A stretch of DNA of 64,000 nt from Acidobacteriota bacterium. GTDB taxonomy: Bacteria > Zixibacteria > MSB-5A5 > GN15 > FEB-12. The stretch is taken from the NCBI GenBank assembly GCA_035529075.1, contig DATKXK010000015.1, positions 62,001 to 126,000 on the forward strand. Reading direction: 5' to 3'. The notes under the pieces were generated by a model. The model worked only from the letters and a program-made list of their open reading frames with translations, searched no databases and was not told the DNA's origin. A program made the translations under genes and the position numbers. The stretch's first letter is position 1. Every line of letters begins with the position of its first letter. Positions 29,342 through 44,672 of this stretch are shown piece after piece.

Positions 29342-30796
29342 ATGGATATTGCCAGCTATTCTTCTGATTCGCGGGCCGTTATCAAGGTTGCCAAGGAAGT
29401 TGCCACGGAGTTCCGACACCCGGAAATCGAGATCGAGCACCTTCTCCTGGCAGTGGTGCGGCATGAGGGTTCCGAGGTCGAGTCGATTCTCAATCAGCTC
29501 GGCAAGAGTCCGAGTTCCGTTGCCTCGATCATCGAGATACACCTCAAGGAGCAGTCCAGCCGCTCCACGGCACGTGCCAACATCAGTATCAGCCCCGCCG
29601 TTGAACTGGTTCTGACTCAGGCGCTTGAGGAGAAGGCCAAGCTGTACGACCCTCTCGTCGAGCCGGAACACATTTTCATAGCCGCCTTTGACCTCAAGTC
29701 AAGCCTGTCTCCCTACATCCGCGACAAGCTTGACATTACCAAGGAGGATATCTACAAGGCGATTGCCGAGAGCAAGGCGGTCCAAGAGATAGCCTCGGGC
29801 GTCACGCCTGCCGGTGAGAGGGTTGCGGTCGAGGGCAGACGGGATGTGCCGGGGACGCTGCGCTACTGCATCGACATGACCAATCAGGCGGCGGCCGGTG
29901 AGTTCGACCCGATGATCGGGCGCGAGAAGGAGGTCCAGCAGGTCATCCAGATTCTGCTGCGGCGGCGAAAGAACTCGCCCGTCCTGGTGGGAGGCGCCGG
30001 TGTCGGCAAGTCCGCTATCGTCGAAGGGTTCGCGCAGGCGATCGTCGCCGGCGGTGTGCCCAAGGCGTTACGGGATGTGAAGGTGATGGAAGTCGACATG
30101 GGCTCCCTGATCGCAGGCGCCAAGTACAAGGGGGAGTTCGAGGAACGGTTTAAGACGCTTGTCGGCGAGGCCGTCAAGTCCGGCGGCAAGCTCGTTCTTT
30201 TCATCGACGAAGTTCACACTATCACCGGCGCGGGAGCCGGTTCCGGCGGCATGGATGCGGCCAATCTGATCAAGCCGGCGCTGGCTCGCGGCCATATCCG
30301 CCTGATCGGCGCCACCACCGAGGAGGAATACACCAAGCACCTCGAGAAGGACAAGGCGCTCGCCCGCCGCTTCGAAAAAGTCAAAGTTGAGGAACCGCTG
30401 TTCGACGAAGCCGTGCGCATTGTCGACGGCGTGGTTTCGAAGTACGCGGAGCATCACAAGATTACCTACACGCGCGAGGCTCTCGTGGGCTCGGTGAAAT
30501 ACGCCAAACGGTACCTGAGTGAGCGCAACCTGCCCGACGTCGCCCTGGACATCATCGACGAGGCTGGTTCCGAATACGCCGTCAAGGAGGAGTTTGCCAG
30601 AGAGAAGCTCCCCGAGCTGACGACGCAAGTGGCGGATATACGCAAGATGATCGCGCAATGTGAAGGTAAAGACCCGGAAAAAGACGCCGAGGCGTTCAGG
30701 CAGTTGCAGGAGTCGTGCGATCAGTTCTGCCGGGTGGTGGACCGGCTGCACGAATTCTGGGGACACCGCCTTGAGGCCGGCGCGGGAGCATCGTAA
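29342..30796 (+). CDS. T6SS ClpV/TssH N-terminal half: Clp N-domain plus AAA+ D1
   Basis: A 484-residue ATPase ending after the first AAA+ module. Residues about 1-145 are the double Clp repeat (LLAVVRHEGSEVESIL and the second copy from AVELVLTQALEEKAKLYDP). The D1 module has Walker A GGAGVGKS at 217-224 (K223) and Walker B with D289 and E290. After D1 comes a short helical stretch (LPELTTQVADIRKMIAQCEG onward), then a stop at 30794-30796. Full ClpV proteins run about 850-900 residues in one chain. Here the second half is the next gene. ClpV disassembles the contracted TssBC sheath. No good Shine-Dalgarno site is seen before this start. Confidence 0.85.
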   Translation: MDIASYSSDSRAVIKVAKEVATEFRHPEIEIEHLLLAVVRHEGSEVESILNQLGKSPSSVASIIEIHLKEQSSRSTARANISISPAVELVLTQALEEKAKLYDPLVEPEHIFIAAFDLKSSLSPYIRDKLDITKEDIYKAIAESKAVQEIASGVTPAGERVAVEGRRDVPGTLRYCIDMTNQAAAGEFDPMIGREKEVQQVIQILLRRRKNSPVLVGGAGVGKSAIVEGFAQAIVAGGVPKALRDVKVMEVDMGSLIAGAKYKGEFEERFKTLVGEAVKSGGKLVLFIDEVHTITGAGAGSGGMDAANLIKPALARGHIRLIGATTEEEYTKHLEKDKALARRFEKVKVEEPLFDEAVRIVDGVVSKYAEHHKITYTREALVGSVKYAKRYLSERNLPDVALDIIDEAGSEYAVKEEFAREKLPELTTQVADIRKMIAQCEGKDPEKDAEAFRQLQESCDQFCRVVDRLHEFWGHRLEAGAGAS

Positions 30797-31899
30797 TGGC
30801 TGACACTGTGAAGAATATCGACGTTCTGAAGCGCGATTTCGAGGAGAGAGCCCGGACGCTCCCGGCGCTCCAGTCGGTCGTGGACAAGCTCGATCAGACA
30901 ATCAACGACTCGGATATCGCCGCCGTGGTGGCCCGCCGGACCGGGATTCCCGTCTCCAAGATGCTCACCGCGGAGAAGGACCGGCTGCTGAACATGGAGG
31001 CGTTCCTGTCCAGGAAAATCGTCGGCCAGGAGAAAGCGATCGCCGCCATCGCCAACGCTATACGCAAGTCGCGCGCCGGACTCAAGCTGGCGCACCGTCC
31101 GGTCGGTTCGTTCCTGTTCCTCGGTCCGACCGGCACCGGCAAGACGTACCTGCCCAAGCTGCTGGCCGAGTTCCTGTTCGATGACAAGAACGCCATGGTG
31201 CGGCTGGACATGTCCGAATACATGGAGAAGCACTCCGTGGCCAAGATGATCGGCGCCCCGCCCGGTTACGTGGGGTACGAGGAAGGCGGCGTGCTGACCG
31301 AGGCCGTCAGGCGTAAACCGTTCTCCATCGTGCTCTTCGACGAGGTTGAAAAGGCCCACCCGGACGTGTTCAATCTGCTGCTGCAGCTGCTGGACGACGG
31401 CCGGCTCACCGACGGCCAGAGCCGCACGGTTGACTTCTCCAACACCCTGGTGGTGCTGACCTCCAACTATGCGGCGGACCAGATTCTCGACGCCGACCGG
31501 GAGGGACGCGAGCTTGACATGGAGGAGGTCCGGTCCTTCCTTTTCTCCAAGTTCCGCCCGGAGTTCCTCAACCGGCTCAACGAGATTATCATCTACCATA
31601 CCTTCACCCCGGAGCAGGTGGAGACGATTGCCGGTCTGGAGTTCAACCAGCTGTGCGAGCTGCTGGAAGATCAGGACATAACGGCCACGCTGAGCGCCGA
31701 GGCCCAGGCCAAGCTGGCCCGTGACGGCTACACCTTTGAGCTCGGCGCGCGGCCGATCCAGCGCATCATCGAGCAGCAGATCGTCAACCGGCTGTCGGTG
31801 GATATAATCACCGGCAAGGTGATGGCCGGCGACAGCGTTCGGGTGGAAGTGCAGGATGACGCATATATATTCACGAATGTAGAAGAAACTAAGAAGTAA
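30796..31899 (+). CDS. T6SS ClpV/TssH C-terminal half: AAA+ D2
   Basis: A 367-residue ATPase starting in a TAATG overlap with the D1 gene, so translation is probably coupled by reinitiation. It opens with a coherent helical lead (VVDKLDQTINDSDIAAVVARRTGIPVSK, given here in part) that in ClpB precedes D2, then Walker A GPTGTGKT at 110-117 (K116), Walker B with D182 and E183, and the C-terminal domain with FELGARPIQRIIEQQI. Both halves keep their ATPase residues, so this looks like a working split, not decay. The two chains would need to assemble as a stacked hexamer. Confidence 0.85.
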   Translation: MADTVKNIDVLKRDFEERARTLPALQSVVDKLDQTINDSDIAAVVARRTGIPVSKMLTAEKDRLLNMEAFLSRKIVGQEKAIAAIANAIRKSRAGLKLAHRPVGSFLFLGPTGTGKTYLPKLLAEFLFDDKNAMVRLDMSEYMEKHSVAKMIGAPPGYVGYEEGGVLTEAVRRKPFSIVLFDEVEKAHPDVFNLLLQLLDDGRLTDGQSRTVDFSNTLVVLTSNYAADQILDADREGRELDMEEVRSFLFSKFRPEFLNRLNEIIIYHTFTPEQVETIAGLEFNQLCELLEDQDITATLSAEAQAKLARDGYTFELGARPIQRIIEQQIVNRLSVDIITGKVMAGDSVRVEVQDDAYIFTNVEETKK

Positions 31900-31924
31900 A
31901 TACAAACTGACGAGGGAGAAGCAT

Positions 31925-32365
31925 ATGGCGAAATTCATCCTCGGTGCGACGGAAAGGATCAAACGGGATGATTCCATTCCCGTGGAACTGCTTCCGTCCA
32001 ACAAAACGCTCTACGCCGCGAAACTCAACAACGACGAAAACGCCGACGTGACACCGATGCGCTGCAACAACATGAAGGAGGTGTTCGAGAAGTATCGGCC
32101 CAACTTCTCGGTCGAGCTTGAGTCAGCGGAGGGGGAGCCGGTTAACGCTGATTTCGAGATCAAGGCGATGAAGGACTTCTCGTCAAAAGAACTCATCGAG
32201 AAGAACGACTACCTTCAGAAGACCTACTACAGCAAGGAGATCATGGCCGATCTTGACAAGCAGCTCAAGAAGAACGCCGCCCTGAAGAAAATCCTGGCGG
32301 ACAAGGAAAAGAAAGAAGCGTTGCTGAAAGTGGCCCAGTACTACGTTGACCTTCTGAGCGAGTAA
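31925..32365 (+). CDS. tssB: T6SS sheath small subunit TssB/VipA
   Basis: A 146-residue protein with the VipA-family opening (VELLPSNKTLYAAKLN), central FEKYRPNFSVELE and a C-terminal helix-rich tail (LKKILADKEKKEALLKVAQYY). It is somewhat short but standard for TssB. It pairs with TssC to form the contractile sheath. GAGGGAG precedes the start, and tssC follows 17 bases later, as in most T6SS operons. Confidence 0.85.
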   Translation: MAKFILGATERIKRDDSIPVELLPSNKTLYAAKLNNDENADVTPMRCNNMKEVFEKYRPNFSVELESAEGEPVNADFEIKAMKDFSSKELIEKNDYLQKTYYSKEIMADLDKQLKKNAALKKILADKEKKEALLKVAQYYVDLLSE

Positions 32366-32382
32366 AGTGAGGTGATGAATAA

Positions 32383-33810
32383 ATGGGTGAAGAGGAAAAA
32401 CAACAGCCGCAACCGGAGGCCGCACCGGCCCAACCGGCGGAAGAAAAAGTAGCCGCTGAGCGACTCTCGGACAGCGATTTTACTTCCATCCTGGAGCAAT
32501 CGTTCGGGGACTTCAAGAAGCTTGCTTCGTTACTCCCCTCGTTCAAGACTGCCGACGGTGATCTCGTGCGCGGAGTCGAGTGGCTCGACCCCAAGAAGGA
32601 TTTCCAGCGCAAGGAATTCCTTAATAAGAAGGAATTCGGCACTCAGCGCCGGCTTTTAGCCGAACGCCTGAAAATCTGGTCGGAGTACCTCTCGCGCAGC
32701 GAGAATCTTGACGACGTTCGCAAGGCGCTCAACGAGTCGGCCACCAAGCTCGAGGAAAACCTCGGCAAGAACATGAAGAAGGTGCATCGAGCCAGTCGCG
32801 AACTCGAAGTCTCCTACCGGGCCATCGACAAGTTCTTCGCCAACGCGCAGGCGGAGCCGGACGAGAAGGTGAATGCCTACTTCTCCAACGTCAGCGCGGA
32901 AGAACTGACCGACCCGGACGACAAGGAGAAGTTCGAGCAGCTGACCACGGCGATCGCCGACCTGTACCGCGAGTGGAGCGTCAAGGAGTGCTTCTCGATG
33001 TGCGTCGTGCCCGGCTACCTCGGGAGCGTCGAGGCCATCGATACCTTTGGCCGGCAACTGGGTCTTCCGAACAAGGTGCATGTCCTGACCGACCTCCCCA
33101 ACTTCGAGAAGTTCGACGAAGTCATGGAGATGCTGGATGATCCCAACTACGCGAACCTGGCCGGAATCGACGACTTCAAGCAGTACGTGTCGGTGTTTGC
33201 CAATTACATGCTGGCGCGTAACGCCAACGCATACGAGGAGGAGGACATGTGGGTGCCGCCGTCGGCGGCGGTGGCCGGCAAGATGTACCAGGGTGACGTG
33301 ACGGTGGGTATGCAGCAGCCGATGGCGGGGTTCAAGCACGGCAAGATCAACGAGGCCAAGTACCTTCGGTTCAAGTGCAACCAGCCGAACGCCAGCAAGA
33401 TCAACGAGAAGGGTGTCAATCCGCTTGTCGATTTCGAGGCGGCCCCGGTGGCCATGGGCGCCGCCACGCTGTTTAAGAAGGAGACCTTTAACGTCTACTC
33501 AATCCGCCGGACCTACGACTACGTGTATAAGACGCTCCGCAACTACCTGAACAAGCAGACGTTCAGCGTGATTGACCAGAAGTTCGTCGACACCATGCGC
33601 CGTGACATCGACAAGTTCATGAAGGCCATCTCGGGCGGCGACAACATTCTTCAGGACTTCAAGGTCGACATTTTTGCCGATGAAGAGATGCGCAAGCGTC
33701 AGGAGATTGACGTCAAGGTGAGCCTTAATCCCAAGTACCCGGCCCGGACATTCAACATCGAGTTCGTCGCCTGGGGCGAGGGAGACCAGGTCAACGTGAA
33801 GGACAAGTGA
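32383..33810 (+). CDS. tssC: T6SS sheath large subunit TssC/VipB
   Basis: A 475-residue sheath protein. After a Q/P/A-rich N-terminus it follows the TssC pattern: LLAERLKIWSEYLSR, WVPPSAAVAGKMYQGDV, and late strands TFNIEFVAWGEGD. At 475 residues it is a little shorter than the usual about 490-510. The low-complexity head (QPQPEAAPAQPAEEK) is variable in this family. Start ATG 32383 follows a GAGGTG site. Confidence 0.85.
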   Translation: MGEEEKQQPQPEAAPAQPAEEKVAAERLSDSDFTSILEQSFGDFKKLASLLPSFKTADGDLVRGVEWLDPKKDFQRKEFLNKKEFGTQRRLLAERLKIWSEYLSRSENLDDVRKALNESATKLEENLGKNMKKVHRASRELEVSYRAIDKFFANAQAEPDEKVNAYFSNVSAEELTDPDDKEKFEQLTTAIADLYREWSVKECFSMCVVPGYLGSVEAIDTFGRQLGLPNKVHVLTDLPNFEKFDEVMEMLDDPNYANLAGIDDFKQYVSVFANYMLARNANAYEEEDMWVPPSAAVAGKMYQGDVTVGMQQPMAGFKHGKINEAKYLRFKCNQPNASKINEKGVNPLVDFEAAPVAMGAATLFKKETFNVYSIRRTYDYVYKTLRNYLNKQTFSVIDQKFVDTMRRDIDKFMKAISGGDNILQDFKVDIFADEEMRKRQEIDVKVSLNPKYPARTFNIEFVAWGEGDQVNVKDK

Positions 33811-33933
33811 CGCCGGCGTGACCGCTTCCGCACACGCGGTTTCACGACGTTGATGTCAGAGCTTTTTGAACAGTGTGGACGGACAAGTAACCACATCAAA
33901 CCATAAGCGTGTAACAGTAAAGGGAGAAACGTA

Positions 33934-34338
33934 ATGGCCAGGAGACCAAGTCTGGAAATCGACGGTGTCGTGTACAAGAATGTGTACGCGGTAAGTTACG
34001 AGCTGTACACCGCCAAGGATGAAACGGGGCGTCCCTCGGACCGTGCCCACGCCGGTCTTATCAAGGTCACTCGCGAATCCGACGAGAACAGCGACATCTC
34101 ACGCTGGGCCATGGATTCCAGTGAGCCGAATATGAAGGGTGGCAAGGTGACGTTCAGGAACCCGCACGACGCAGTCATGAAAGAGCTGACGTGGGAGCAA
34201 GGGTTCATCACGCGTTACGAGGAACACGTCCCGCACGTTAAGGACAGGCCTGACGATCAGGTCTTTGAGTACTTCGAAATGTCTTGCCAGCGGCTCAAGA
34301 TCGGCGACGCCGAGATTGACAACCGGTGGAAGGAGTAA
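33934..34338 (+). CDS. hcp: T6SS tube protein Hcp (TssD)
   Basis: A 134-residue protein that stacks as hexameric rings to form the inner tube. Its edge strands and central loop (LEIDGVVYKNVYAVSYELYTA, then ITRYEEHVPHVKDRP) fit the TssD form more common in Bacteroidetes than the longer proteobacterial Hcp of about 160-170 residues; that subtype call is tentative. It follows AAGGGAG. A 123-base gap with GC-rich inverted segments (near 33817-33844) separates it from tssC and may help set a higher expression level. Confidence 0.75.
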   Translation: MARRPSLEIDGVVYKNVYAVSYELYTAKDETGRPSDRAHAGLIKVTRESDENSDISRWAMDSSEPNMKGGKVTFRNPHDAVMKELTWEQGFITRYEEHVPHVKDRPDDQVFEYFEMSCQRLKIGDAEIDNRWKE

Positions 34339-34401
34339 GAAGATGCGCGTGTCAGCCGGGCGGATCGCAGTGTCCGCCCGGCTGCATGCCACCTCAGACA
34401 C

Positions 34402-36159
34402 GTGAGCGAATACGCTATGCCAAAACTTGAAACCAGCGCCGAATGTCGGGTAAAGATTGACAACGAGGAGATCAAACACACCGTCTCCTCGGTCAGGCTC
34501 GAACAGTGCATAGATGGACACCACGTCCTGCAGGTCGGGATCCGCGGGGGAGCGCAGGCCACGGGCGGCGCCAAGCTGGAGGATCCCAGCCAGTTTACCG
34601 GCTTTCTGGGAAAGACGATTTCGGTGACGATACAGCCGGTTGGGGATGTCGTTGACCCCTCGCTGACCATGCAGTTTGTCGGCATCGTCACCGAGGTGCG
34701 TCTGGACAACAGCGTTGACGAGTTCAATTGCGTCACCATTGTCGGGCGCAGCCCGACTATCGCCCTGGAGGGCGCGAAGCGTAACAGCTTCCACCACGAG
34801 GAGACCGGGAGCAGTATCGTCGAAGCGGTTCTTCGCGAGCACCAGATTACAGTCGGCTCAGTCGAATCGACCAAGAAAGCGCTTGAGTTCAGCGTTCAGT
34901 ATCGGGAGTCCGACTACGAGTATGTTATGCGCATCGCGTCGGAGAGCGGCTTGTTCGCGTTTTATGACGGCCGGCAGTTTTACGCCGTGAAAGCCAGCAG
35001 CGACACCGCCGCCGAAGTGACTTTTCGCGAGACCCTCGGAGTATTCTCGATGGGGCTCGGTACGGCTATCTCGGATTATCTCACGCAGGCATGGGACCAG
35101 GCCAATAAGCAGTCCCTCGAGGGAGATGTGACCGGGACGCCGAAAGGCTCCTCGCCCTCGGAGCTGTCGAGCATTTCCTTGAAGGCCTCGAGCACGGTTT
35201 TTGCCAAACCGGGTTTCACCGCGGCCGTCAAGGCCCCCGACATGGCCTCGGTCGACGCGGTGCTCGCACGGGCAAAGGAATCGTCCGTCGGGCGCATGGT
35301 CCGGTGCCGGGGCGAGTCAATTGTCCCCGCCGTGGCCGTCGGACACTGTGTTAAGATAAGCGGGATGGATAAGCTCGACGGCCTTTACTGGGTGCAGACT
35401 GTCACGCACGTCTTTGACGAGAGCGGCAAGTACCACAATACGTTTACGTGCACCCCCCTGGACGTCGCGTTCCCCCCCGCCATAGCTCCCGGACCTCCGA
35501 TCACGGACTTGCAGAGCGCCGTCGTGGTTGACAACAACGACCCGGAGAAGCTCGGGCGCGTGAAGGTGAAGTTTCCCTGGCAGGGTTCGGACGAAACACC
35601 CTGGATTCGCGTCATGACCCCGCAGGCCGGTGCCGAGCGCGGCTGGTACGGCATTCCGGAGATAGATGATGAGGTCCTGATCGGCTTTGAACACGGTGAC
35701 CCGGACCTGCCTCTCGTTCTCGGCTCCCTTTACAGCGGTAAGGACGCGCCGCATGGCGACACCGGCGGTGAGGACAATCTCGTCAAGCTGTATATGACCA
35801 AGGGCGGCAACCAGATCTGCTTCACGGACAAAGAGGGCGCCGAAGAGATCAGGATTGCTCAGAAGGACGGCAAGAACACGATCGTGGTGACGCTGGACGG
35901 TCCCGCCATCAGCATCGAGAGCCAGGGCGACATTACCATCAAAGGTGCAACCATCAGCCTTGAGAGCACCAAAGGCGACGTCACTGTCAAGTCTGCCGGC
36001 AAGCTGGTCGAAGAGAGTAAGGCGGATCTGACGCTCAAGGCGGGCATGAACCTCAAGAGCGAGGCTTCCGTCAACTACGAAATCAAGGGCGGGGCCAACT
36101 GCAAGGTTGAGGGCGGCGCCATGGTCAAAGTGCAAGGGGCCATGGTTCAGATAAATTAG
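34402..36159 (+). CDS. vgrG: T6SS spike protein VgrG (TssI)
   Basis: A 585-residue VgrG with the gp27-like N-terminal part (to about 360) and the gp5-like C-terminal beta prism: WIRVMTPQAGAERGWYGIPEIDDEVLIGFEHGD, shown here in sections, then repeated short strands (ISIESQGDITIKG, DVTVKSAGKLV). There is no extra C-terminal catalytic domain, so cargo probably rides on PAAR and adaptor proteins of the payload block. The start may be GTG 34402 or ATG 34417; neither has a strong ribosome site. Confidence 0.9.
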   Translation: MSEYAMPKLETSAECRVKIDNEEIKHTVSSVRLEQCIDGHHVLQVGIRGGAQATGGAKLEDPSQFTGFLGKTISVTIQPVGDVVDPSLTMQFVGIVTEVRLDNSVDEFNCVTIVGRSPTIALEGAKRNSFHHEETGSSIVEAVLREHQITVGSVESTKKALEFSVQYRESDYEYVMRIASESGLFAFYDGRQFYAVKASSDTAAEVTFRETLGVFSMGLGTAISDYLTQAWDQANKQSLEGDVTGTPKGSSPSELSSISLKASSTVFAKPGFTAAVKAPDMASVDAVLARAKESSVGRMVRCRGESIVPAVAVGHCVKISGMDKLDGLYWVQTVTHVFDESGKYHNTFTCTPLDVAFPPAIAPGPPITDLQSAVVVDNNDPEKLGRVKVKFPWQGSDETPWIRVMTPQAGAERGWYGIPEIDDEVLIGFEHGDPDLPLVLGSLYSGKDAPHGDTGGEDNLVKLYMTKGGNQICFTDKEGAEEIRIAQKDGKNTIVVTLDGPAISIESQGDITIKGATISLESTKGDVTVKSAGKLVEESKADLTLKAGMNLKSEASVNYEIKGGANCKVEGGAMVKVQGAMVQIN

Positions 36160-36168
36160 TCAGGGTTC

Positions 36169-36543
36169 ATGGAATACTTAGCCTTACCGTTTGTGCTCCG
36201 GGAGGGGTACTTTCGCCGCGCCAGCCTGCACGAATCCATTACCTATTCGGTCGGGCTCATGCTGAGCACCCGCATGGGCCTGATGCAATTTGACCCGGAA
36301 TTCGGGTGCGAGATCTGGGGAAGGGAGTTCTCGGATCTGTACACCTCCAGCCGGGCGAACGTCCGGGCCAACCTGAGAAACACCATTGACAAGTTTGAAA
36401 AGCGACTCTACAACGTCTCGGTTTCGTTCACCAGCCCCTCCGGCAGCACCGCCCAGGCACTGGGCGTGCTGGTGAAAGTGAGCGGCAACTACCGGGATGG
36501 TGACGAAGAGCGGAAATTCGAGGGATCGTACCTGTTAGGCTGA
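36169..36543 (+). CDS. tssE: T6SS baseplate protein TssE (gp25-like)
   Basis: A 124-residue gp25-like wedge protein of the baseplate. The conserved core is YSVGLMLSTRMGLMQFDPEFG, followed by NLRNTIDKFEKRL and a late strand LGVLVKVSGNYRD. Length and order (after vgrG, before tssF) match T6SS baseplate clusters. Ten bases separate it from vgrG. Confidence 0.85.
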   Translation: MEYLALPFVLREGYFRRASLHESITYSVGLMLSTRMGLMQFDPEFGCEIWGREFSDLYTSSRANVRANLRNTIDKFEKRLYNVSVSFTSPSGSTAQALGVLVKVSGNYRDGDEERKFEGSYLLG

Positions 36544-36555
36544 CGGACAACTGTT

Positions 36556-38238
36556 ATGAATACCAAACCCAAGCCCGAAGAGCAAAAGTCCCGGGACCGG
36601 TTCTTTGCCCTGATGTATCAGGACCTGCGCGCCTGGAACCGCCAGATCCCCGAATCTCCCGAGCGCATCGACCCGGTGCTGCGAATACTGCTACAGCTTT
36701 TCGCATACCAGCTCACGGACATCGACAAGCGATTGGATGCCACCTGGGACGTGGCGACGAAGTCCCTGATCAAGTCCATGGCGCCCGAGGCCAAACGCTG
36801 GCCCATTCCCGCGTTCACCGTTATGCGCTGCGAGCCGGCCGACCCGGTGGTCGAAATCGATCCCCACACGAAATTCTTCTATAAAGAGAAGCGCGAAGGC
36901 GGGCAGACTTTTTTTTTCTGCTCGCAACGACAAGAAAAACTGATCGCTGCTCGCGTCAGGCACTCGCTGCTCGTTGACGGCAACACCGTTACCGACCTCA
37001 TCCCCTCCCCGGATAAGCCCCAGCCGGCGTCACGAACGGCCTCAGGCGTCGGCGGCGACCGCAGGACCTGCCTGCATGTTGCCGTTGAGTTCGGCGGCCT
37101 CGTCTCTGATTTCAGGGACGCCTCGCTGTTTCTCCGAGGTGACGACGACGTACTGAAACAGTTGCGCTGGGCGTACTGGTATCCCGGCGACAAGGCCGGG
37201 CAGTTCAGTAAGGACGCCGGTTTCTGCCCCGGGCTGACGTCCTCGGTCGAGGGCATGTTCTCTTACAACAGCGAGTCACCGGTAGACTGGGGCGGTCTAA
37301 GGACCAGCACCGACCTGTTCGGGCCGCTCGAGAACAGCTGGGTGGTGTTGCCGGAATCGTTCGCTGATGCGTGGGAGATAGGCCCTCCCGGCGACGGGTT
37401 GAGCGGCCTGCTGGACGCGGCGGGAGTGCAGCTTTCGTCGGCCGACCGGCGCTTCTACTGGATGCGCGTTGATCTCCCGCCCGGCGGCGACAAGCGGCGC
37501 CTCCATTCGCCGCTTGAGATGTTCTTCAACTGCTTTGCAGCCACGAACAGAAACGAACTTACCGTGTTCAAGCACACCGGTGGCAACCCGCTGGTGGAGA
37601 TCGAACTGCCCGAGCACCTGGACAGCATTCTCGACATCGTCAGCGTGATTGACTCACAGGGCACGGAATACCTGCCCCGGTACAGGATACACGGCGGCGG
37701 GGGAGCCAACTCCTACGCGCTCGAACAGCGCGATAACAGGCTGGTTCTCTGGTTCGATTTCTCGTCCGGCCTCGGCATTCCGCCCGATGCTCTGACCGTC
37801 ACCTACTCGGTCACCGCCGGCGTGGCTCCCAACGGTATCGCCGCGGGCAAGATTACAGAGTTGTACGAGAGCCACCCCGGCATACTGTCGGCTGCGAATA
37901 TTCTACCCGTGCAGGGTGCCATTCCGGCGAAGGGCGACCAGCAGTTGATCGCCGAGATCTCGGCGCGCCTGCGCAATCGTGATCGGGCGCTTACGTTTGC
38001 CGACATTTCATCATGGGTTATGGCTTTCGACCCTCGCATCCGCAAGGTCGAGTGTAAAAACGGCATCGAACGGGCCAGGCGGGGTGTGCGCAGGTGTATT
38101 GTCGTCACCGTCACCGTCAAACAGAAGGACATCTACTCCGAGGATGAAGTGGCGCTGCTGGCTCGGCGGCTCACGCGGTTTCTCAAGTCTCGTTCTCCCA
38201 TCAACACCCACTTCGCAGTGGAGATCAAGGCCACGTGA
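36556..38238 (+). CDS. tssF: T6SS baseplate protein TssF (VasA/ImpG-like)
   Basis: A 560-residue protein. The TssF opening is clear: YQDLRAWNRQIPESPERIDP, then LLQLFAYQLTDIDKRLD, then the PIPAFTVMRCEPA turn. TssF binds TssG in a 2:1 complex that forms the baseplate wedges with TssE and TssK. Twelve bases after tssE; its stop overlaps the start of tssG by four bases. Confidence 0.85.
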   Translation: MNTKPKPEEQKSRDRFFALMYQDLRAWNRQIPESPERIDPVLRILLQLFAYQLTDIDKRLDATWDVATKSLIKSMAPEAKRWPIPAFTVMRCEPADPVVEIDPHTKFFYKEKREGGQTFFFCSQRQEKLIAARVRHSLLVDGNTVTDLIPSPDKPQPASRTASGVGGDRRTCLHVAVEFGGLVSDFRDASLFLRGDDDVLKQLRWAYWYPGDKAGQFSKDAGFCPGLTSSVEGMFSYNSESPVDWGGLRTSTDLFGPLENSWVVLPESFADAWEIGPPGDGLSGLLDAAGVQLSSADRRFYWMRVDLPPGGDKRRLHSPLEMFFNCFAATNRNELTVFKHTGGNPLVEIELPEHLDSILDIVSVIDSQGTEYLPRYRIHGGGGANSYALEQRDNRLVLWFDFSSGLGIPPDALTVTYSVTAGVAPNGIAAGKITELYESHPGILSAANILPVQGAIPAKGDQQLIAEISARLRNRDRALTFADISSWVMAFDPRIRKVECKNGIERARRGVRRCIVVTVTVKQKDIYSEDEVALLARRLTRFLKSRSPINTHFAVEIKAT

Positions 38239-39149
38239 GTCCACGTTCTCCCAGCAGGATGCCGGACTTCTGCAGCCGGCGAAATCCGTTTCACTACACG
38301 ACCGCACTGAACACCCTGATGAAAATAGGAATTGATCTGTCCCGGGTCAGTCTCCTCGCGGTCGGCCATTTCGAGAACTACAAGGGTGAGGTCCACTGCC
38401 AGACTCCCGCGCCGGGCACTGAGATTACGCCCGAGACCCGGATCGCGCTGGAAGTCGGAAGTTCCAGCGGCACTGATTATGTGCCGTTCCAGTTCTTCTA
38501 CGGTATCAGGGGCGAGCACGTCGCCGGTGACGATTGGGAGACCAGGGCGCGCGAACTTCTGACTCCGTTCGACTCCTCCGTGATAAGGTACGAAGCGGCC
38601 ACCCAGTACCAGAAGCGCAAGTTCAATTTCGGCGTGGTCGACAGGCCGCAGCTGGTCCGCTTTCTGCAATTGTTCGGCTCTTCCGCGGAGACCGGCTGCG
38701 AGAACCTTCAGGAGTTGCTGTTCTGGGCGTCGGTCATGCCCACGTTCCACCTCTGGGCCGGGAATCCGCAGGCGGTTGCCGCCGTCCTCGAGCGGCTCAT
38801 CATGCATCCCGTCGGGATCATCGAGAACACCAGGGCCCGCTACGATATTCCCGAATCGTGCCAGTCCCGGCTCGGCGCCGCCACCGGTTGTCTGGGCGAG
38901 CAATTCGTGCTTGGCCGTTCGTTCAGCGAGTGCGACAGCAGCTACGAAGTGGTCATTCACGGCATCGAGCCGAAAGACGTTCCGGATTATCTGCCCGGGG
39001 GAGCGCGTCGCAAGAAGCTGGAGTGGGTCTTAAGTGTTTGTATGCCAAGCAACTTGGAACCCCGGTTTCGAATCGAAGCCAAGTCGAAGGCCGCCCGGAT
39101 CGGAAAGAAACGAGGCAAATGCTACCTGGGGTATTCCACGTATGCCTGA
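38235..39149 (+). CDS. tssG: T6SS baseplate protein TssG (VasB/ImpH-like)
   Basis: A 304-residue protein. The C-terminal block LGAATGCLGEQFVLG, the IEPKDVPDYLPGG turn, and the end LGYSTYA correspond to the family's conserved LG-rich region and its terminal LGWTSWL. The N-terminal half is divergent. I keep GTG 38235, overlapping the tssF stop; an internal ATG at 38259 is possible. It would join TssF in the wedge. Confidence 0.8.
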   Translation: MSPRSPSRMPDFCSRRNPFHYTTALNTLMKIGIDLSRVSLLAVGHFENYKGEVHCQTPAPGTEITPETRIALEVGSSSGTDYVPFQFFYGIRGEHVAGDDWETRARELLTPFDSSVIRYEAATQYQKRKFNFGVVDRPQLVRFLQLFGSSAETGCENLQELLFWASVMPTFHLWAGNPQAVAAVLERLIMHPVGIIENTRARYDIPESCQSRLGAATGCLGEQFVLGRSFSECDSSYEVVIHGIEPKDVPDYLPGGARRKKLEWVLSVCMPSNLEPRFRIEAKSKAARIGKKRGKCYLGYSTYA

Positions 39150-39243
39150 AACGAACGCACGTCGCGGCGGCGACGAATGTATTAGGCTTGACATTGAAAC
39201 AACTGAGTCATAGATTCCGGCCGTTGGCTCTGAGGGCAAGATA

Positions 39244-40695
39244 ATGAGCGACTTTAACTTATACTCGGTAAACTGGCAGGACGGGATGCTGATCACGCAG
39301 CAGCATCTGAAGGATCAGGAACGCTATTTCGAGAACCTGGCGCGGTGGTACGCCGTCAACGTGGGTGACAGCTACGGACTCATTCGTAAGGCCTTCTCGG
39401 GAAAGCCGGCCCTGAGTTTGAACCTGTCGCTCAGCGGCAACCGGCTCACCGTGGAGGTCGCTCGATGCCAGGCCCTGACGCCCGACGGGTCGTGCGTGGA
39501 AATCAACGAATCCACTAAGCCCGTCGTGAGGGCGCAGTGCGAGGTTCATGATACGCCTGTGAAGGTCTTCATTGCCGTCGACGCGACTACCAAGCATGAG
39601 GTGGGAGACCCGGACCCGAACGAAGACGTGCCGCGCATGCCGTACCTTAGCTGTAAATACTCTCTGCACCTCGGCACGCCGCCGAACCTTCCCGCCGGCG
39701 GCTTCCTCGAGGTGGCGAGGCTGGCTGTCGGCGGCAACGAGGTGGCACCGACACCCAACTTTTACCCCGCCTGTCTGAATCTGTTTGCCGATGAGCGGCT
39801 GCTTTCCAAGGCCAACGAGTTCCGGGATCGCCTTGAGAAACTGCTCTTTCTGTCGTCGCAGGCATATACGGCCGTCACCAGCGAGGACGGTACTCTGGCC
39901 GGGGAGAAAGGTGGTCTCCAGCTGGCCTTCAAGGAAACCGTGGAACAACTGGCATACCACCTGTCCGCCACCCTTGACACCTTCGTGGTCGACCGCAACG
40001 CCGCCCATCCGATTCAACTCGTGATTGCTTTCAGGCGGTTGTTTCGCCTGTTCTCGACCTCGCTCAATCTGCGATCCGGGTTGAAAGATTACCTCAATGA
40101 GCAGTTTTTCATCAAGGTCAAGAAGACGGACATTCGCGGGTTCATGTCGTCCTTGGACAGCTTCCTGCTTTCCCAGTATAACCATCAGGACCTGGGCGGG
40201 CATATTGACGCCATCGACAAACTTCTTGAAACGTTGCGCGGCGTGCTTGACTTTCTGGCCCAGGTCAAGAGCGGTCAGCTCGGTCCCCAGGCCGTCAGAA
40301 CCGATATGCTCACGTATCTGGGCAAAACCTACCGGTTGGCGGAGTATTCCAGCAGCCGGCTGGAGCAGGTCGGAGAGCTCAGTTACCTGGTTATCGATCT
40401 TGCCCAGGCCGGGGCTTTTACGAACACGGTGGTTCTCATAACGAAGGACCTGTTCAGCGCCGCTGAATGGTCCAGCATGCAGGTGCGTCTTGGTCTGAAC
40501 CAGGCCCGCGGGCTGGGCGAGACCGACCCGGTCGATATCGATACCATGACGTTTGCCAACAAGGTGGCACTGTACCCCAAGGATATGCTTGCGCTGTCGT
40601 CGGTCAATCAGCTTACGCTGATTTTCCGTGGAACCGCCGATGCCGAGAAGCTCTCCGGCTTGGGCGATGCGGACCTTATCGTGTACGGTGTGTGA
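39244..40695 (+). CDS. tssK: T6SS baseplate connector TssK (VasE/ImpJ-like)
   Basis: A 483-residue protein with the TssK head (VNWQDGMLITQQHLKDQERYF), the shoulder strands LNLSLSGNRLTVEV, and a helical middle ending in a receptor-binding-like C-terminal domain. TssK trimers connect the baseplate to the membrane complex through TssL and TssM. A GAGGG site precedes ATG 39244. Neighbouring genes preserve the E-F-G-K-L-M order. Confidence 0.85.
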   Translation: MSDFNLYSVNWQDGMLITQQHLKDQERYFENLARWYAVNVGDSYGLIRKAFSGKPALSLNLSLSGNRLTVEVARCQALTPDGSCVEINESTKPVVRAQCEVHDTPVKVFIAVDATTKHEVGDPDPNEDVPRMPYLSCKYSLHLGTPPNLPAGGFLEVARLAVGGNEVAPTPNFYPACLNLFADERLLSKANEFRDRLEKLLFLSSQAYTAVTSEDGTLAGEKGGLQLAFKETVEQLAYHLSATLDTFVVDRNAAHPIQLVIAFRRLFRLFSTSLNLRSGLKDYLNEQFFIKVKKTDIRGFMSSLDSFLLSQYNHQDLGGHIDAIDKLLETLRGVLDFLAQVKSGQLGPQAVRTDMLTYLGKTYRLAEYSSSRLEQVGELSYLVIDLAQAGAFTNTVVLITKDLFSAAEWSSMQVRLGLNQARGLGETDPVDIDTMTFANKVALYPKDMLALSSVNQLTLIFRGTADAEKLSGLGDADLIVYGV

Positions 40696-40716
40696 GAGGT
40701 AAAAATATAGTGTGCC

Positions 40717-41640
40717 ATGAGTGATATCAGGTCATACATCGACGACCTCTTCCGCTACATCGAGAGCTACGAGAAGAGTTACTCTGAATCCCAGACTGAA
40801 GCCTTTATCCAGACGTATCAGGGGGTTTATGCCGTTTTCCAGGCGTTGCGCCAGCAGCGTGACAAGGCCGTCATGGTCGACCAGTGTTTCCTGGGAAAGG
40901 TCAGGCAGTCGCCGCTTAACAGTTCGGATCTCCGCCAGTTGACCATACAGGTGCTCGTCAGCTTCTTTGAGTCGGAAGCCGATATCGACGGTCAGTCCAA
41001 TCAGGTATACTCGTACTGCCGCAGTTTGCGATCGGTCAGGCAGGATGTTCCGTACTTCGAAGCCAGCCTGATGCCGCTGCTGTTTCGCCAGGGCAGCCTC
41101 AACGGTAACTTCCGCCTGAATTCCTTCTTTCTGGCCGAGATCGCGCGTTTCATTCAGAAGTTCGGCAAACCGCTTCAGGTGGCCCTGGCGCCCGAGGCAT
41201 TTGCGGCGATGCCCGATCCGCTGAAGCTCCTGGAATTGGCGCGCCGACGCCTTGAGCTCGGCACCGATCTCATTGGCGACAGATCCAGTCTCGAGTTTCA
41301 CCTGCGTCAGGTCGACGCCTTTGAAAAGCTCAAGCAGCGGCACCGGTTGTTCGAGTCATACCTCAGGGATTGGGAATACCTGGTAACCAGGAGTTACTGG
41401 CTGACGGTCCGGAATTTCTTGGCCCGGTCGTGGGTTAAGATCAAGGGGGCGTTTTCCAGTTGGCGCTACTTCCGGCTCGTCCTCGGTCAGCGGAATCCCG
41501 CCTTCCTGTTCTATGGTGTCATCATCGTGGTCATGATCCTGCTGGCCATCCTTGTTCCGACGTGGTGGGGCAACTACGGGGACGGGCAGCTCGAGGATTT
41601 CAAGGAGCGGGTCGAGAGCGTGCAATCGGGCTCGAAGTGA
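40717..41640 (+). CDS. tssL: tail-anchored inner-membrane protein, likely TssL equivalent
   Basis: A 307-residue protein whose cytoplasmic helical domain (1 to about 261) is followed by a single membrane helix at about 263-284 (FLFYGVIIVVMILLAILVP) and a short outer tail. This is the topology of TssL, which contacts TssK. However, DotU-family core motifs are not clearly seen, and the PG-binding domain of some TssL proteins is absent. The call rests on position after tssK, topology, and the following GTPase gene. The ribosome site is weak. Confidence 0.65.
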   Translation: MSDIRSYIDDLFRYIESYEKSYSESQTEAFIQTYQGVYAVFQALRQQRDKAVMVDQCFLGKVRQSPLNSSDLRQLTIQVLVSFFESEADIDGQSNQVYSYCRSLRSVRQDVPYFEASLMPLLFRQGSLNGNFRLNSFFLAEIARFIQKFGKPLQVALAPEAFAAMPDPLKLLELARRRLELGTDLIGDRSSLEFHLRQVDAFEKLKQRHRLFESYLRDWEYLVTRSYWLTVRNFLARSWVKIKGAFSSWRYFRLVLGQRNPAFLFYGVIIVVMILLAILVPTWWGNYGDGQLEDFKERVESVQSGSK

Positions 41641-41686
41641 ACAAAACGGATTTTGCATTCGTGCAGGTGGCGGAAGGACGCCCATA

Positions 41687-43879
41687 GTGAAGCCGAAGAA
41701 CATATTCAAGATATTCCAGAAGGGTTCCAAGGCGGCGTCCCGCGCGAAGAAAAAGTGTCACGTGGAGTCGAAGTGGCCGTCGGGAATCCGGATCGGCATT
41801 TACGGCCACACCAACACGGGGAAAACGGTTTACCTCACGGTCCTGAACGAAGACTGCAAGATTTCCAAGAAACTTCAGATCGCCGTGTCGGATACGACCA
41901 CGGCCGGAGAGCTGCTGGCCAACTATCGTTCCATCTGGGGCCTGGGCATCAGCAGCGAAGTCGGCACCGTCGTTGATCTTCGGGGAGAAAAAAAGTTCCC
42001 GGAGGCGACCACGGGCCACAAGACCCTGTTGTTCAACGCCATTCTGGACCGCTCCAGCAAAATGCCGGTCGTGGCGCTGGACTACGACGGCAAGGCGGTC
42101 TCGATCTCCGAACAGAGCGATCTGAAGGACAAGGTCGAGGAGTTCATGGCCGGCTGCGACGGGATCCTCGTGTTTTACGACCCCAAGATGCTCGGCGCCG
42201 AGTGGCAGACGCAGGAATGTGCCGCCTCGTTTTCCCACATGCTGGAGCAACTGGCTCCGCTGCATCGGCGTCTGCCTGTCCCGGTCGGTCTGGTGGTCAC
42301 GAAAGCCGACATTCTGCCCGGCTTTACCGGAGACAACGAAACTGTTCTCATCAATCCGGAGGATGAGAATTTCCTCTCGCAGGATTTCGAAACGTTCCTG
42401 GAAAGGGTGCTGGCCAGCGACAAATTGACCCGCAATCAGGTCTGGGCGGGCACCGTGCGCGACGTTCTTGTCAAGCTTCAGGAGTTCCTGAAAGCCGTCA
42501 TCGGCCGGACTCTCAACTTCCAGATATTCTTCATTTCCTCCACGGGACAGCCGCCGGAGAAGATCGGCACCGAGATTGGGCGGTCGATCTACCAGCCGCC
42601 CAAGAAGATGACCCCGATTGGCGTGAAGGAACCGATGTACTGGCTCCTGCATGCAATCAAGCGCAATCGGAGAGTTTCCCGCCTGGGGGCCGTGGCACGC
42701 GTGGTTACGTACGCCGCGGTGATCTGGATTGCCGTCTGCTCGCTGCCTTACCTGTACCACTTCAAGTTCCTGCTGCCGCGCACCTATCAGGTCGAGGAGC
42801 GGATACTTGATCTCTACGAGGGCAACCCGTTTAACATGTCTGCGCAGGAGCGCACCGTCATCGGGACCGCTTATCGACGGTATCAGAACTCGCTGGCGGT
42901 CAGATGGATGTTCCCCGGGTTCACGGCGCCGGCCCAGCGCAAGATTGACATGTACCGTGAGTTCGACCTCGGCGAGGGGATCAAACGCCTGGACGGTCTC
43001 ATTGTGGGTTTCACGACCATTGTCTCTGATACCCTGCTCTGGCCCAAGGTCAATCCGAGCAATGATTCGCTGATGCCGACGCAGGCGTACGACCAGTTGA
43101 TGGCTCAGTTGGAGGCTTTTCACAAGGGAGAAGAGACGTCCATTCTCTTCGCGCGCAGCGGCCGCGTGCTGCAGTACCGCGATCTGTTTCATCAGGCCAT
43201 TATTCAACGCGATGACACCACGTACTGGAATACGATCAAACGGCAGGTGCAGCAGGATCAGAGCCTTTACGCTAAGCAGATCAGCCCCGCCGAGAAACAG
43301 TTCGGCGCGGTGTTGATGCAGTATGAGCTTGATAAAGTCAAGGAGGTCATCGCGGAAACGAAGGCCTTTGAGATGAGTGACTTGATCGACCGCGTAAATG
43401 GGTACACTGACCCGCGAGATCGCCTTGAAAAGGCCGTCAATGAATTGCAGGACGTGCTCTCGCAACTTGCCCCGTCGGACGTCAACAACCGAAACACTAT
43501 CCGCACCTACCTGCGGGCGGCCGAGAGCTGGTTCAAACGTCGAGCCTATACGTGCAAGGTCGAAACCCTGCCCGGACAGGATCACCTGCACATCGAAGTT
43601 ACGGACAACGGGGCGGACCCGACCTGGTCCGAACTCAACCAGATCTTTCAGGGTGACGAGACAAAAATCATCTGGGAACCGGGCCGGGATATCCATATTG
43701 CGCTTGACACCCTCGGGCACAACTGCCAATTGGGCAAGGACGCAAGCGAGAAGATTACGCTGTCGAAAAAATATTGCTTGTTTGAGATGGAAGGTGACCT
43801 TTCTTTCGACAATACCGGCAGGAAAATCAACGTTCGTTTCAAGCCCAGCCTGAGCGAGCAGTTGCCGGCGTTAAAGTGA
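41687..43879 (+). CDS. tssM: single-pass P-loop GTPase, likely reduced TssM equivalent
   Basis: A 730-residue protein starting at GTG 41687 after GGAAGGA. The N-terminal cytoplasmic part has Walker A GHTNTGKT at 40-47 (K46) and a TKAD nucleotide-specificity motif at 205-208. One membrane helix (about 339-360) leads to a periplasmic domain of about 370 residues with helix-rich repeats (ERTVIGTAYRRYQ, then AESWFKRRAYTC) and a final beta segment. TssM proteins of about 1100 residues carry an N-terminal two-helix hairpin before the GTPase; here that hairpin is missing and the chain starts almost directly with the GTPase. No TssJ lipoprotein is encoded nearby for the periplasmic domain to bind. 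Confidence 0.65.
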   Translation: MKPKNIFKIFQKGSKAASRAKKKCHVESKWPSGIRIGIYGHTNTGKTVYLTVLNEDCKISKKLQIAVSDTTTAGELLANYRSIWGLGISSEVGTVVDLRGEKKFPEATTGHKTLLFNAILDRSSKMPVVALDYDGKAVSISEQSDLKDKVEEFMAGCDGILVFYDPKMLGAEWQTQECAASFSHMLEQLAPLHRRLPVPVGLVVTKADILPGFTGDNETVLINPEDENFLSQDFETFLERVLASDKLTRNQVWAGTVRDVLVKLQEFLKAVIGRTLNFQIFFISSTGQPPEKIGTEIGRSIYQPPKKMTPIGVKEPMYWLLHAIKRNRRVSRLGAVARVVTYAAVIWIAVCSLPYLYHFKFLLPRTYQVEERILDLYEGNPFNMSAQERTVIGTAYRRYQNSLAVRWMFPGFTAPAQRKIDMYREFDLGEGIKRLDGLIVGFTTIVSDTLLWPKVNPSNDSLMPTQAYDQLMAQLEAFHKGEETSILFARSGRVLQYRDLFHQAIIQRDDTTYWNTIKRQVQQDQSLYAKQISPAEKQFGAVLMQYELDKVKEVIAETKAFEMSDLIDRVNGYTDPRDRLEKAVNELQDVLSQLAPSDVNNRNTIRTYLRAAESWFKRRAYTCKVETLPGQDHLHIEVTDNGADPTWSELNQIFQGDETKIIWEPGRDIHIALDTLGHNCQLGKDASEKITLSKKYCLFEMEGDLSFDNTGRKINVRFKPSLSEQLPALK

Positions 43880-43901
43880 CTACAGAGAGCAGGAGTTGAC
43901 C

Positions 43902-44432
43902 ATGCACGGTGACAGGGAGTGGATACAAGTCATTACAGGATGTGCTCTTCTGGGGCTGGTCTGTCTTTTCCCGTGCGGCACGGCCACGGCGGCAAGGGTA
44001 CAGCTTCCGGCAGGCACCGAGGTTAAAGTCAAGTTTGACCCCCTGGTGACGATCAATTCCGGCCGTTCGGTGGCGGGCGTTCCGTTGCAGGTACACCTGG
44101 CCGAGGCCATAACGGTCAGCGGCAGGGTTGTCGTTGAAGAAGGGGCAGTCGGAACGGCTACGATCATGGAAGTCGTCCAAGCCGGCCGCGGCGGCAAGCC
44201 GGGGAAGATATCCGTAAGTTTCGTGGAGTTGCAAACCAAGGGGCTGTTCAAGGCTCCCGACGATGCCCTGATCAAGCTCGCCGGTTCTGAGACCCGGGCA
44301 GGCAAGGGGAAAAAGCTGCTGTCCTACCTGTTCATTGCCGGGCTGTTCATAAAAGGCGGGCAGGCGGAAATCCCGACGGATCAAGTCTATATGGCCACTA
44401 TTGCCGAGACGATCATCCTGGAGAGCGAGTAG
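43902..44432 (+). CDS. secreted beta-rich protein at the end of the T6SS machine block
   Basis: A 176-residue exported protein (signal region WIQVITGCALLGLVCLFPCGTA, shown in part). Starting at ATG 43902 fits the GCAGGAG site. The mature part repeats short strands (VQLPAGTEVKVKFDP, VSGRVVVEEGAVGTATIMEV), matching a widespread group of secreted beta proteins in which a PAGT opening and a VxGxVVxxxGA block recur; their role is unknown. Although it fills the slot where TssJ often sits, its cysteines do not form a clear lipobox, so I do not call it TssJ. Confidence 0.5.
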   Translation: MHGDREWIQVITGCALLGLVCLFPCGTATAARVQLPAGTEVKVKFDPLVTINSGRSVAGVPLQVHLAEAITVSGRVVVEEGAVGTATIMEVVQAGRGGKPGKISVSFVELQTKGLFKAPDDALIKLAGSETRAGKGKKLLSYLFIAGLFIKGGQAEIPTDQVYMATIAETIILESE

Positions 44433-44590: not shown

Positions 44591-44672
44591 TAACCAGATA
44601 TTCTCGGCAGTAACGCTCCCGATGCGTTGCATGACGGGATTCACCTCCAAACCTTGTCAGAGGTGGTGTTCT

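What the first reader, a model, noticed from the sequence alone, without database searches (positions are those of the whole stretch)
29342..44432. Divergent T6SS in an FCB-like lineage, with two-block organisation
ClpV, TssB, TssC, Hcp, VgrG, TssE, TssF, TssG, TssK and likely TssL/TssM equivalents lie in one run, with payload genes immediately upstream. T6SS is best studied in Proteobacteria (subtype i), Francisella (ii) and Bacteroidetes (iii, which lacks TssJLM). This cluster combines a TssD-like Hcp with TssK and L/M-like genes and lacks TssA and TssJ, so it does not fit neatly into those subtypes. Gene identity comes from sequence motifs; the subtype claim is inference.
Basis: partly seen in the sequence, partly recalled or inferred. 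Interest (0 to 1): 0.88.

Follow-up and report, generated by a model that had tools for sequence, protein, structure and literature searches.

The report
T6SS with an unrecorded membrane anchor
These bacteria carry a molecular spear gun whose shaft resembles that of Bacteroides, but the parts that should hold it in the cell envelope are neither of the two anchors known for such guns and appear to be built around a membrane GTPase from another protein family, which gives a way to study how these weapons changed anchors in evolution.

Summary
The cluster is real: a 13-gene type VI secretion operon (29342-44432), with a conserved spike/peptidase/chaperone block upstream (18161-25945), in a Zixibacteria genome. 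It is not a local oddity: its 307-aa marker gene is in 62 of 132 Zixibacteria genomes, and the system also occurs in records named Krumholzibacteriota. Sheath, tube, spike and most of the baseplate are closest to Bacteroidota subtype iii, a subtype a 2024 survey found in no other phylum. The membrane complex is neither TssJLM nor TssNQOPR, and IcmF_C, DotU, TssJ and TssN were not found in the genome. Instead: (1) a 307-aa helical protein with one C-terminal membrane helix, beside TssK; (2) a 730-aa one-pass GTPase whose cytoplasmic domain is a DO-GTPase2 (profile E 6e-20, against 1e-5 to TssM); (3) a small exported protein whose predicted fold matches the VirB10/TrwE outer-membrane domain of type IV secretion. 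Divergent members carry a weakly GAP1-N2-like gene beside the GTPase, the usual DO-GTPase partner. ClpV is split into two genes at a conserved junction. Assembly and function are inferred, untested.

The parts
11922..13679 (+). Ser/Thr protein kinase with PEGA-like tail; likely regulator, accompanies the spike block in relatives
   Evidence: Pkinase PF00069 129 bits; STK and P217 homologues near PAAR in L057, L058, L061, L063, L066
13716..14369 (+). 217-aa protein, partner of the kinase gene
   Evidence: conserved next to the kinase in relatives
18161..19246 (+). PAAR spike tip with C-terminal beta domain
   Evidence: PF05488, 81 bits; conserved upstream in relatives
19279..23289 (+). 1336-aa protein with HELGHxxxxxDEY zinc-peptidase motif; candidate conserved effector carried by PAAR
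   Evidence: motif near residue 866; HExxH kept in all 16 homologues longer than 400 aa, one of them in a different context; next to PAAR in L057, L058, L061, L062, L065, L066. No Pfam hit
23361..24587 (+). exported PQQ-type beta-propeller protein; possible immunity or accessory protein
   Evidence: PF13360 32 bits; conserved position
24615..25046 (+). DcrB-family protein, EagR-like effector chaperone candidate
   Evidence: PF08786 42 bits; conserved position
25064..25945 (+). 293-aa protein sharing the C-terminal domain of the PAAR protein; spike adaptor candidate
   Evidence: homologues of about 290-300 aa upstream of ClpV in many relatives; start read from sequence; shared domain seen by eye in the translations
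25966..28326 (+). 786-aa candidate variable effector
   Evidence: no Pfam family or PDB hit of note; no homologue at the relatives' loci
28323..29135 (+). 270-aa exported protein, candidate immunity partner
   Evidence: hydrophobic N-terminus, overlaps the previous gene; not found in relatives
29342..30796 (+). ClpV/TssH part 1 (Clp_N, NBD1, lid)
   Evidence: PF17871, PF02861, PF00004; TIGR03345 E 3e-115
30796..31899 (+). ClpV/TssH part 2 (NBD2, D2-small)
   Evidence: PF07724 215 bits; split at nearly the same alignment column in Zixibacteria relatives, fused in Krumholzibacteriota records
31925..32365 (+). TssB sheath small subunit
   Evidence: PF05591
32383..33810 (+). TssC sheath large subunit, subtype iii-like
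   Evidence: PF17541 240 bits; 27-29% identical to Bacteroidota TssC; tree
33934..34338 (+). Hcp/TssD tube protein
   Evidence: PF17642 76 bits
34402..36159 (+). VgrG/TssI spike
   Evidence: PF04717, PF05954
36169..36543 (+). TssE
   Evidence: PF04965
36556..38238 (+). TssF
   Evidence: PF05947
38235..39149 (+). TssG
   Evidence: PF06996
39244..40695 (+). TssK
   Evidence: PF05936, TIGR03353 E 1e-14
40717..41640 (+). 307-aa all-helical cytoplasmic protein with one C-terminal membrane helix (TssL position and topology, no detectable TssL homology); proposed baseplate-to-membrane link
   Evidence: AF2 model pLDDT 83; one TM in 48 of 49 members; in 62 of 132 genomes; adjacent to TssK in 81 locus pairs, some of them repeats of one genome
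41687..43879 (+). 730-aa inner-membrane DO-GTPase2-family GTPase, single TM, about 380-residue periplasmic part; proposed core of the membrane complex
   Evidence: PF19993 in 21 of 21 members; profile comparison with DO-GTPase2 E 6e-20; G motifs nearly invariant in 42 members
43902..44432 (+). 176-aa exported beta protein with VirB10/TrwE C-terminal-domain fold; proposed outer-membrane component
   Evidence: AF2 pLDDT 88.6; Foldseek top hits all VirB10/TrwE/CagY/ComB10; stays next to the GTPase gene even where that gene has moved

Best explanation
This is a contact-dependent type VI secretion system. Its contractile tail and baseplate come from the same stock as Bacteroidota subtype iii, but it is docked to the envelope by a different membrane complex. 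Proposed working: the DO-GTPase2 membrane protein (41687-43879) and the 307-aa protein (40717-41640) form the inner-membrane platform; the 307-aa protein links TssK of the baseplate to the membrane, and the GTPase crosses the periplasm to the VirB10-CTD-like protein (43902-44432), which forms or gates the outer-membrane ring in place of TssJ or TssR. GTP binding and hydrolysis would control assembly or opening. Sheath contraction then drives Hcp/VgrG/PAAR with a PAAR-linked zinc peptidase and variable effectors through the complex, and the two-chain ClpV recycles the sheath. Shown by sequence: tail and baseplate identity, subtype iii affinity, failure to find the known anchor families, DO-GTPase2 identity, conserved gene order. 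Predicted: folds and topology. Inferred: that the three proteins form one complex, the GTP switch, and secretion itself.
For: Components and order. HMMs of this system score Bacteroidota iii parts higher than subtype i parts: TssC 219-275 bits against none, Hcp 29-70 against none, TssB 70-83 against 19-34, VgrG 280-358 against about 160, TssF 48-127 against 16-21, TssK 30-112 against 17-21; TssG and ClpV do not discriminate. TssC tree separates subtype i at 100/100. No IcmF_C, DotU, TssJ or TssN in the genome. GTPase matches DO-GTPase2 at E 6e-20, score 144, against score 48 for TssM. GAP1-N2-like gene next to it in divergent members. Fold match of 43902-44432 to VirB10 CTD, with a weak sequence bridge. 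TssK-L307 and GTPase-P178 pairs persist where the cluster is broken up. Gene pairs in T6SS mirror physical contacts (PMC10781749).
Against: No experiment. The VirB10-like domain also occurs in lone exported proteins in genomes without this T6SS, so it is not proof of an outer-membrane pore; TM-score is only about 0.45. The GAP1-N2 match is below Pfam's cut-off and the gene is absent from the window's own cluster. The 307-aa protein has no known relative. A remote relation of the GTPase to TssM remains (E 1e-5). The periplasmic part of the GTPase was not modelled.
Confidence: 0.68

Rival explanations
1. The membrane complex is a very divergent TssJLM: the GTPase is a shortened TssM without its first two membrane helices, the 307-aa protein a TssL and the exported protein a TssJ. 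The system is a hybrid with a subtype iii tail on a subtype i anchor.
For: Same gene order as TssK-TssL-TssM; TssL-like topology; profile match of the GTPase family to TssM, Prob 92, E 5e-7, score 70 against at most 24.5 for 25 shuffles.
Against: Real DO-GTPase2 proteins match three times better over the GTPase domain (score 144 against 48), and TssM matches DO-GTPase2 about as well as this GTPase matches TssM, as expected of GTPase cousins. Canonical TssM proteins score 268-314 bits to IcmF-related_N, the window's protein 14. No TssL signal by profile or fold. The fold of the exported protein matches VirB10, with no TssJ among the listed hits.
Confidence: 0.17
2. The 307-aa, GTPase and exported genes are an accessory regulatory module, for example a GTPase sensor of the DO-GTPase/GAP1 kind, and the true anchor is encoded elsewhere or is absent.
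For: DO-GTPase systems are predicted regulatory switches (PMC7159879); a GAP1-N2-like gene accompanies divergent members.
Against: Presence with the T6SS across 62 genomes and tight order TssK-L307-GTPase; no other membrane proteins are conserved in the core cluster; known anchors not found in the genome.
Confidence: 0.12
3. The cluster is an intracellular or released contractile injection system rather than a membrane-docked T6SS.
For: Some contractile systems with similar tails lack membrane anchors (own knowledge).
Against: ClpV, TssK, TssF and TssG of the T6SS kind are present; two conserved inner-membrane proteins and one exported protein are encoded with it.
Confidence: 0.03

Closest known systems
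T6SS subtype iii (Bacteroidota; TssNQOPR membrane complex; PMC10781749)
   Same: TssB, TssC, TssD, VgrG, TssE, TssF, TssK are closest to it; no TssJLM
   Different: No TssN, TssO or TssR in the loci compared; different membrane complex; different phylum; one compact operon; split ClpV
T6SS subtype i (TssJLM)
   Same: Gene order TssK, small C-terminally anchored protein, large NTPase membrane protein; three-part envelope complex in outline
   Different: No detectable DotU, TssJ or IcmF_C; sheath and tube too far for HMM detection; no TssA in the cluster
DO-GTPase / GAP1-N2 conflict systems (eLife 2020, PMC7159879)
   Same: DO-GTPase2 domain followed by a TM and an extracytoplasmic part; GAP1-N2-like neighbour in divergent members
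   Different: Embedded in a T6SS operon; no FNIII protein or zinc ribbons seen; no T6SS link of this kind in the passages read
VirB10/TrwE/CagY/ComB10 C-terminal domain of type IV secretion
   Same: Predicted fold of the 176-aa exported protein; weak TrbI similarity through Zixibacteria homologues
   Different: Signal-like N-terminus and the beta domain only, without VirB10's long periplasmic part; no VirB7 or VirB9 seen
T6SS subtypes ii (Francisella) and iv (Amoebophilus)
   Same: Contractile tail
   Different: No reference sequences of either subtype were compared here

Membership tests
Type VI secretion system (general) | Sheath TssB/TssC, tube Hcp, spike VgrG/PAAR | tested here: met
Type VI secretion system (general) | Baseplate TssE, F, G, K and ClpV | tested here: met
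   ClpV in two chains
Type VI secretion system (general) | Secretion of Hcp or killing on contact | not testable with these tools
   needs a cultured strain
T6SS subtype i | TssL (DotU) and TssM (IcmF) | tested here: not met
   whole-genome searches empty, E. coli control positive; GTPase is DO-GTPase2
T6SS subtype i | TssJ lipoprotein | tested here: not met
T6SS subtype i | TssA | tested here: inconclusive
   no ImpA_N hit in the cluster genes; whole genome not searched
T6SS subtype i | Sheath of subtype i | tested here: not met
   no HMM hit; tree split 100/100
T6SS subtype iii | Sheath/tube of TssC PF17541 and TssD PF17642 kind | tested here: met
T6SS subtype iii | TssN (nearly ubiquitous in iii) | tested here: not met
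   the genome search has no positive control, but the local search recovers the Bacteroidota TssN genes
T6SS subtype iii | TssO, TssP, TssQ, TssR | tested here: inconclusive
   TssO and TssR absent from the relatives' loci; TssP only a weak hit in L070; TssQ not tested
T6SS subtype iii | Confined to Bacteroidota | tested here: not met
   Zixibacteria and records named Krumholzibacteriota
DO-GTPase2 (PF19993) | Family profile match | tested here: met
   21 of 21 members at E<1; several over the cut-off of 27 bits, the window's 26.6 alone and 29.1 with neighbouring matches; hhalign E 6e-20
DO-GTPase2 (PF19993) | GTPase motifs G1, G3, G4, G5 | tested here: met
   nearly invariant in 42 members
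DO-GTPase/GAP1-N2 system | Adjacent GAP1 | tested here: inconclusive
   weak, below cut-off, only in divergent members; none in the window
VirB10/TrbI family | C-terminal beta domain | tested here: inconclusive
   fold match prob 1.00, TM about 0.45; no direct Pfam hit, indirect bridge via L206 below cut-off
TssL/DotU | DotU cytoplasmic fold or sequence | tested here: not met
   topology alone is similar
T6SS subtype ii | Francisella-type sheath and components | not tested
   no reference sequences fetched

The most novel reading that the evidence does not exclude
A third, independently recruited type VI membrane complex: a DO-GTPase/GAP1-type membrane GTPase, a new helical TssK-linked membrane protein and a VirB10-CTD-like outer-membrane protein hold and gate a subtype-iii-like tail, so that docking or firing is GTP-controlled. 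This would be a new T6SS subtype of the Zixibacteria and neighbouring phyla, and direct evidence that T6SS tails change anchors repeatedly.
Probability: 0.55. Interest if true: 0.88.

Novelty: new variant of a known kind. Interest (0 to 1): 0.76.

Why it matters
The 2024 description of the Bacteroidota membrane complex reported subtype iii in no genome outside that phylum and left open whether the iii anchor replaced a TssJLM ancestor, the reverse, or both were gained separately (PMC10781749). A system with a iii-like tail but a third kind of anchor, old enough to be spread over many Zixibacteria families, makes that question testable and favours repeated recruitment of anchors. It also proposes a physical job for a membrane DO-GTPase, a family described from predicted conflict systems, and a VirB10-like outer-membrane part in a T6SS.

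Tried and rejected
A genome-contig scan with the single 307-aa protein found nothing, a limit of exact peptide patterns, since the alignment finds 62 genomes. Shallow profile comparisons were uninformative: they failed even for TssC against TssC, so deeper alignments were made. I first read the GTPase as a true TssM; comparison with real DO-GTPase2 sequences overturned that. PDB sequence searches with the three membrane-complex families gave nothing of note. The idea that the exported protein comes straight from a type IV secretion system was tempered: the domain is common in lone exported proteins, some with glycine zippers, of these genomes. The 307-aa protein was tested as DotU, as a GAP1-like protein and against proteins next to DO-GTPases, all negative. 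Effector candidates gave no PDB hit of note. The order of this sheath relative to Bacteroidota iii could not be resolved.
Full report
WHAT IS THERE. The window is contig C15:62001-126000 of a nearly complete Zixibacteria genome (3.04 Mb, 21 contigs, 100% complete, 0.6% contaminated). Named relatives are mostly Candidatus Zixiibacteriota. From 29342 to 44432 lies one + strand operon: ClpV part 1, ClpV part 2, TssB, TssC, Hcp, VgrG, TssE, TssF, TssG, TssK, a 307-aa protein, a 730-aa GTPase and a 176-aa exported protein. The classical parts are over Pfam's curated cut-offs. Upstream lies a second block: PAAR, a 1336-aa protein with a HELGHxxxxxDEY zinc-peptidase motif, a PQQ-type exported protein, a DcrB/EagR-like chaperone candidate and a spike adaptor candidate, then a variable pair (786 aa and 270 aa). 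The order PAAR, peptidase, PQQ protein, DcrB, adaptor is conserved in several relatives, often with a Ser/Thr kinase gene nearby; the HExxH motif is kept in all 16 long homologues, though in one it lies in a different context.

CONSERVATION. The operon order is kept in the fetched relatives from several families and orders, with TssC at 69-81% identity in close ones and about 37-48% in divergent ones. The 307-aa family is found in 62 of 132 Zixibacteria genomes, one match each except one genome with two pieces. Strong matches of the exported protein (E below 1e-30) occur in 51 genomes; all but two also have the 307-aa gene, and in those two the exported gene lies beside the GTPase gene near a contig end. 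Records named Krumholzibacteriota carry the system with TssC at about 71-72% identity. By contrast IcmF_C, the mark of a canonical TssM, is in 12 of 132 genomes and shares only one genome (G062) with the 307-aa gene; the genomes are related, so this is not a count of independent events.

SUBTYPE OF THE TAIL. HMMs built from this system score Bacteroidota subtype iii parts above subtype i parts: TssC 219-275 bits against no hit, Hcp 29-70 against none, TssB 70-83 against 19-34, VgrG 280-358 against about 160, TssE 34-58 against 20-28, TssF 48-127 against 16-21, TssK 30-112 against 17-21. TssG (25-46 against 21-43) and ClpV do not discriminate. In the TssC tree all subtype i sequences form one side of a branch (100/100), and this group, its divergent relatives and Bacteroidota iii form the other. 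Whether this group is one clade apart from iii is not resolved (AU p 0.43); quick TssK and TssF trees agree that i and iii are each coherent. So the tail is subtype iii-like, outside Bacteroidota. [quoted passage not shown]

THE MEMBRANE COMPLEX IS NEITHER KNOWN KIND. In this genome IcmF_C, DotU, TssJ (SciN) and TssN were not found (the first three rang in E. coli as control, TssN had no control in that search). In relatives' loci no TssN, TssO or TssR match appears, while the same HMMs recover the Bacteroidota genes. Conversely the three genes here have no counterpart in the Bacteroidota iii or subtype i loci compared, apart from one marginal GTPase match to a TssM.

THE GTPASE (41687-43879). 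It has a cytoplasmic GTPase domain, one membrane helix near residue 333-351 and a periplasmic part of about 380 residues. G1, G3 (DYxG), G4 (TKAD) and G5 (S-x-T-G) are nearly invariant in 42 members. All 21 members of the alignment match DO-GTPase2 (PF19993) and 11 match IcmF-related_N weakly. An alignment with TssM looked convincing at first (Prob 92, E 5e-7, score 70.2 against at most 24.5 for shuffles). The deciding control was a set of eight DO-GTPase proteins from cyanobacterial plasmids (Pfam DO-GTPase2 57 bits for the seed protein): they match at Prob 99.2, E 6e-20, score 144, against E 1e-5, score 48 for the TssM NTPase domain; TssM and DO-GTPase2 match each other at E 2e-5. The protein is therefore a DO-GTPase2-family membrane GTPase and TssM a distant cousin. 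Membrane DO-GTPases with extracytoplasmic domains after a C-terminal TM are described for GAP1-N2-type systems (PMC7159879). In divergent members a 271-278-aa gene directly after the GTPase matches GAP1-N2 (E 1e-4 to 5e-4, below cut-off). It is absent from the window.

THE 307-AA PROTEIN (40717-41640). The model is confident for residues 1-220 (all helices) with a C-terminal membrane helix (mean pLDDT 83); one TM in 48 of 49 members. No Pfam, PDB-sequence, profile or fold relative was found, DotU/TssL included. It stays next to TssK, even in a family where the GTPase gene has moved (L181; counts). In Bacteroidota TssN lies next to TssK and binds it, which makes the 307-aa protein the candidate baseplate link here.

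THE EXPORTED PROTEIN (43902-44432). Signal-like N-terminus and a beta domain (pLDDT 88.6). The first 20 fold matches are all VirB10, TrwE, CagY or ComB10 C-terminal domains or other chains of type IV outer-membrane core complexes (E from 2e-3, probability 1.00 for the best, TM-score about 0.45). A sequence bridge exists: a Zixibacteria protein in L206 matches both this family's HMM (30 bits) and TrbI (25 bits, below cut-off) and carries a glycine zipper. Such lone exported proteins are common in genomes without this T6SS, so the domain alone does not prove an outer-membrane pore. The link to the GTPase gene is strong: in G095 the GTPase gene sits in a separate locus, next to this gene and PAAR (L207).

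SPLIT CLPV. Part 1 ends and part 2 begins within the linker between the two ATPase domains, in nearly the same alignment column in Zixibacteria relatives, with short overlaps or gaps; Krumholzibacteriota records and two divergent families have one fused gene. It is a stable trait of most members, not a sequencing error in this window.

HOW IT MOST LIKELY WORKS. See Best explanation. Established by sequence: components, order, subtype iii affinity, failure to find the anchor families tested, DO-GTPase2 identity. Predicted: topology and folds. Inferred: that the three proteins form one envelope complex, that GTP controls it, and that the system secretes.

WHERE IT STANDS. It is a T6SS by its tail and baseplate. 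It is not subtype i (anchor and sheath tested, not met) and not subtype iii as defined (TssN not met, wrong phylum), though its tail is iii-like. Subtype ii was not compared. A literature search for T6SS in Zixibacteria found only two incidental papers and none for related phyla; absence from this library is not proof of novelty. I rate it a new variant of a known kind.

Noticed in passing
L163-L174 (G001, G030, G062, G087, G089, G101, G126-G131): Twelve of 132 Zixibacteria genomes carry a canonical subtype i T6SS with TssM, TssL-like and TssK genes; only one of them (G062) also has the system described here.
   Followed up: partly
29342-31899: ClpV/TssH is split into two overlapping genes at a conserved junction in most Zixibacteria; it is fused in Krumholzibacteriota records and in two divergent families.
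   Followed up: partly
L202-L206, L209, L212, L213: A large family of small exported or lipoprotein-like beta-domain proteins, some with glycine zippers and weak TrbI similarity, is widespread in Zixibacteria outside T6SS loci.
   Followed up: partly
19279-23289: PAAR-linked large protein with a conserved HELGHxxxxxDEY zinc-peptidase motif and no Pfam family; variable in length and sequence among relatives.
   Followed up: partly
16074-17960 and 44622-47906: Two proteins with FlgD-Ig/Por-type C-terminal sorting domains flank the T6SS, suggesting a type IX-like export route in this genome.
   Followed up: no
L055 (G093 contig C158, 4679-5917 and 9364-11109): Two TssC-like sheath proteins of different length in one contig with only weak similarity; possibly another contractile injection system.
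   Followed up: no
   Followed up: no
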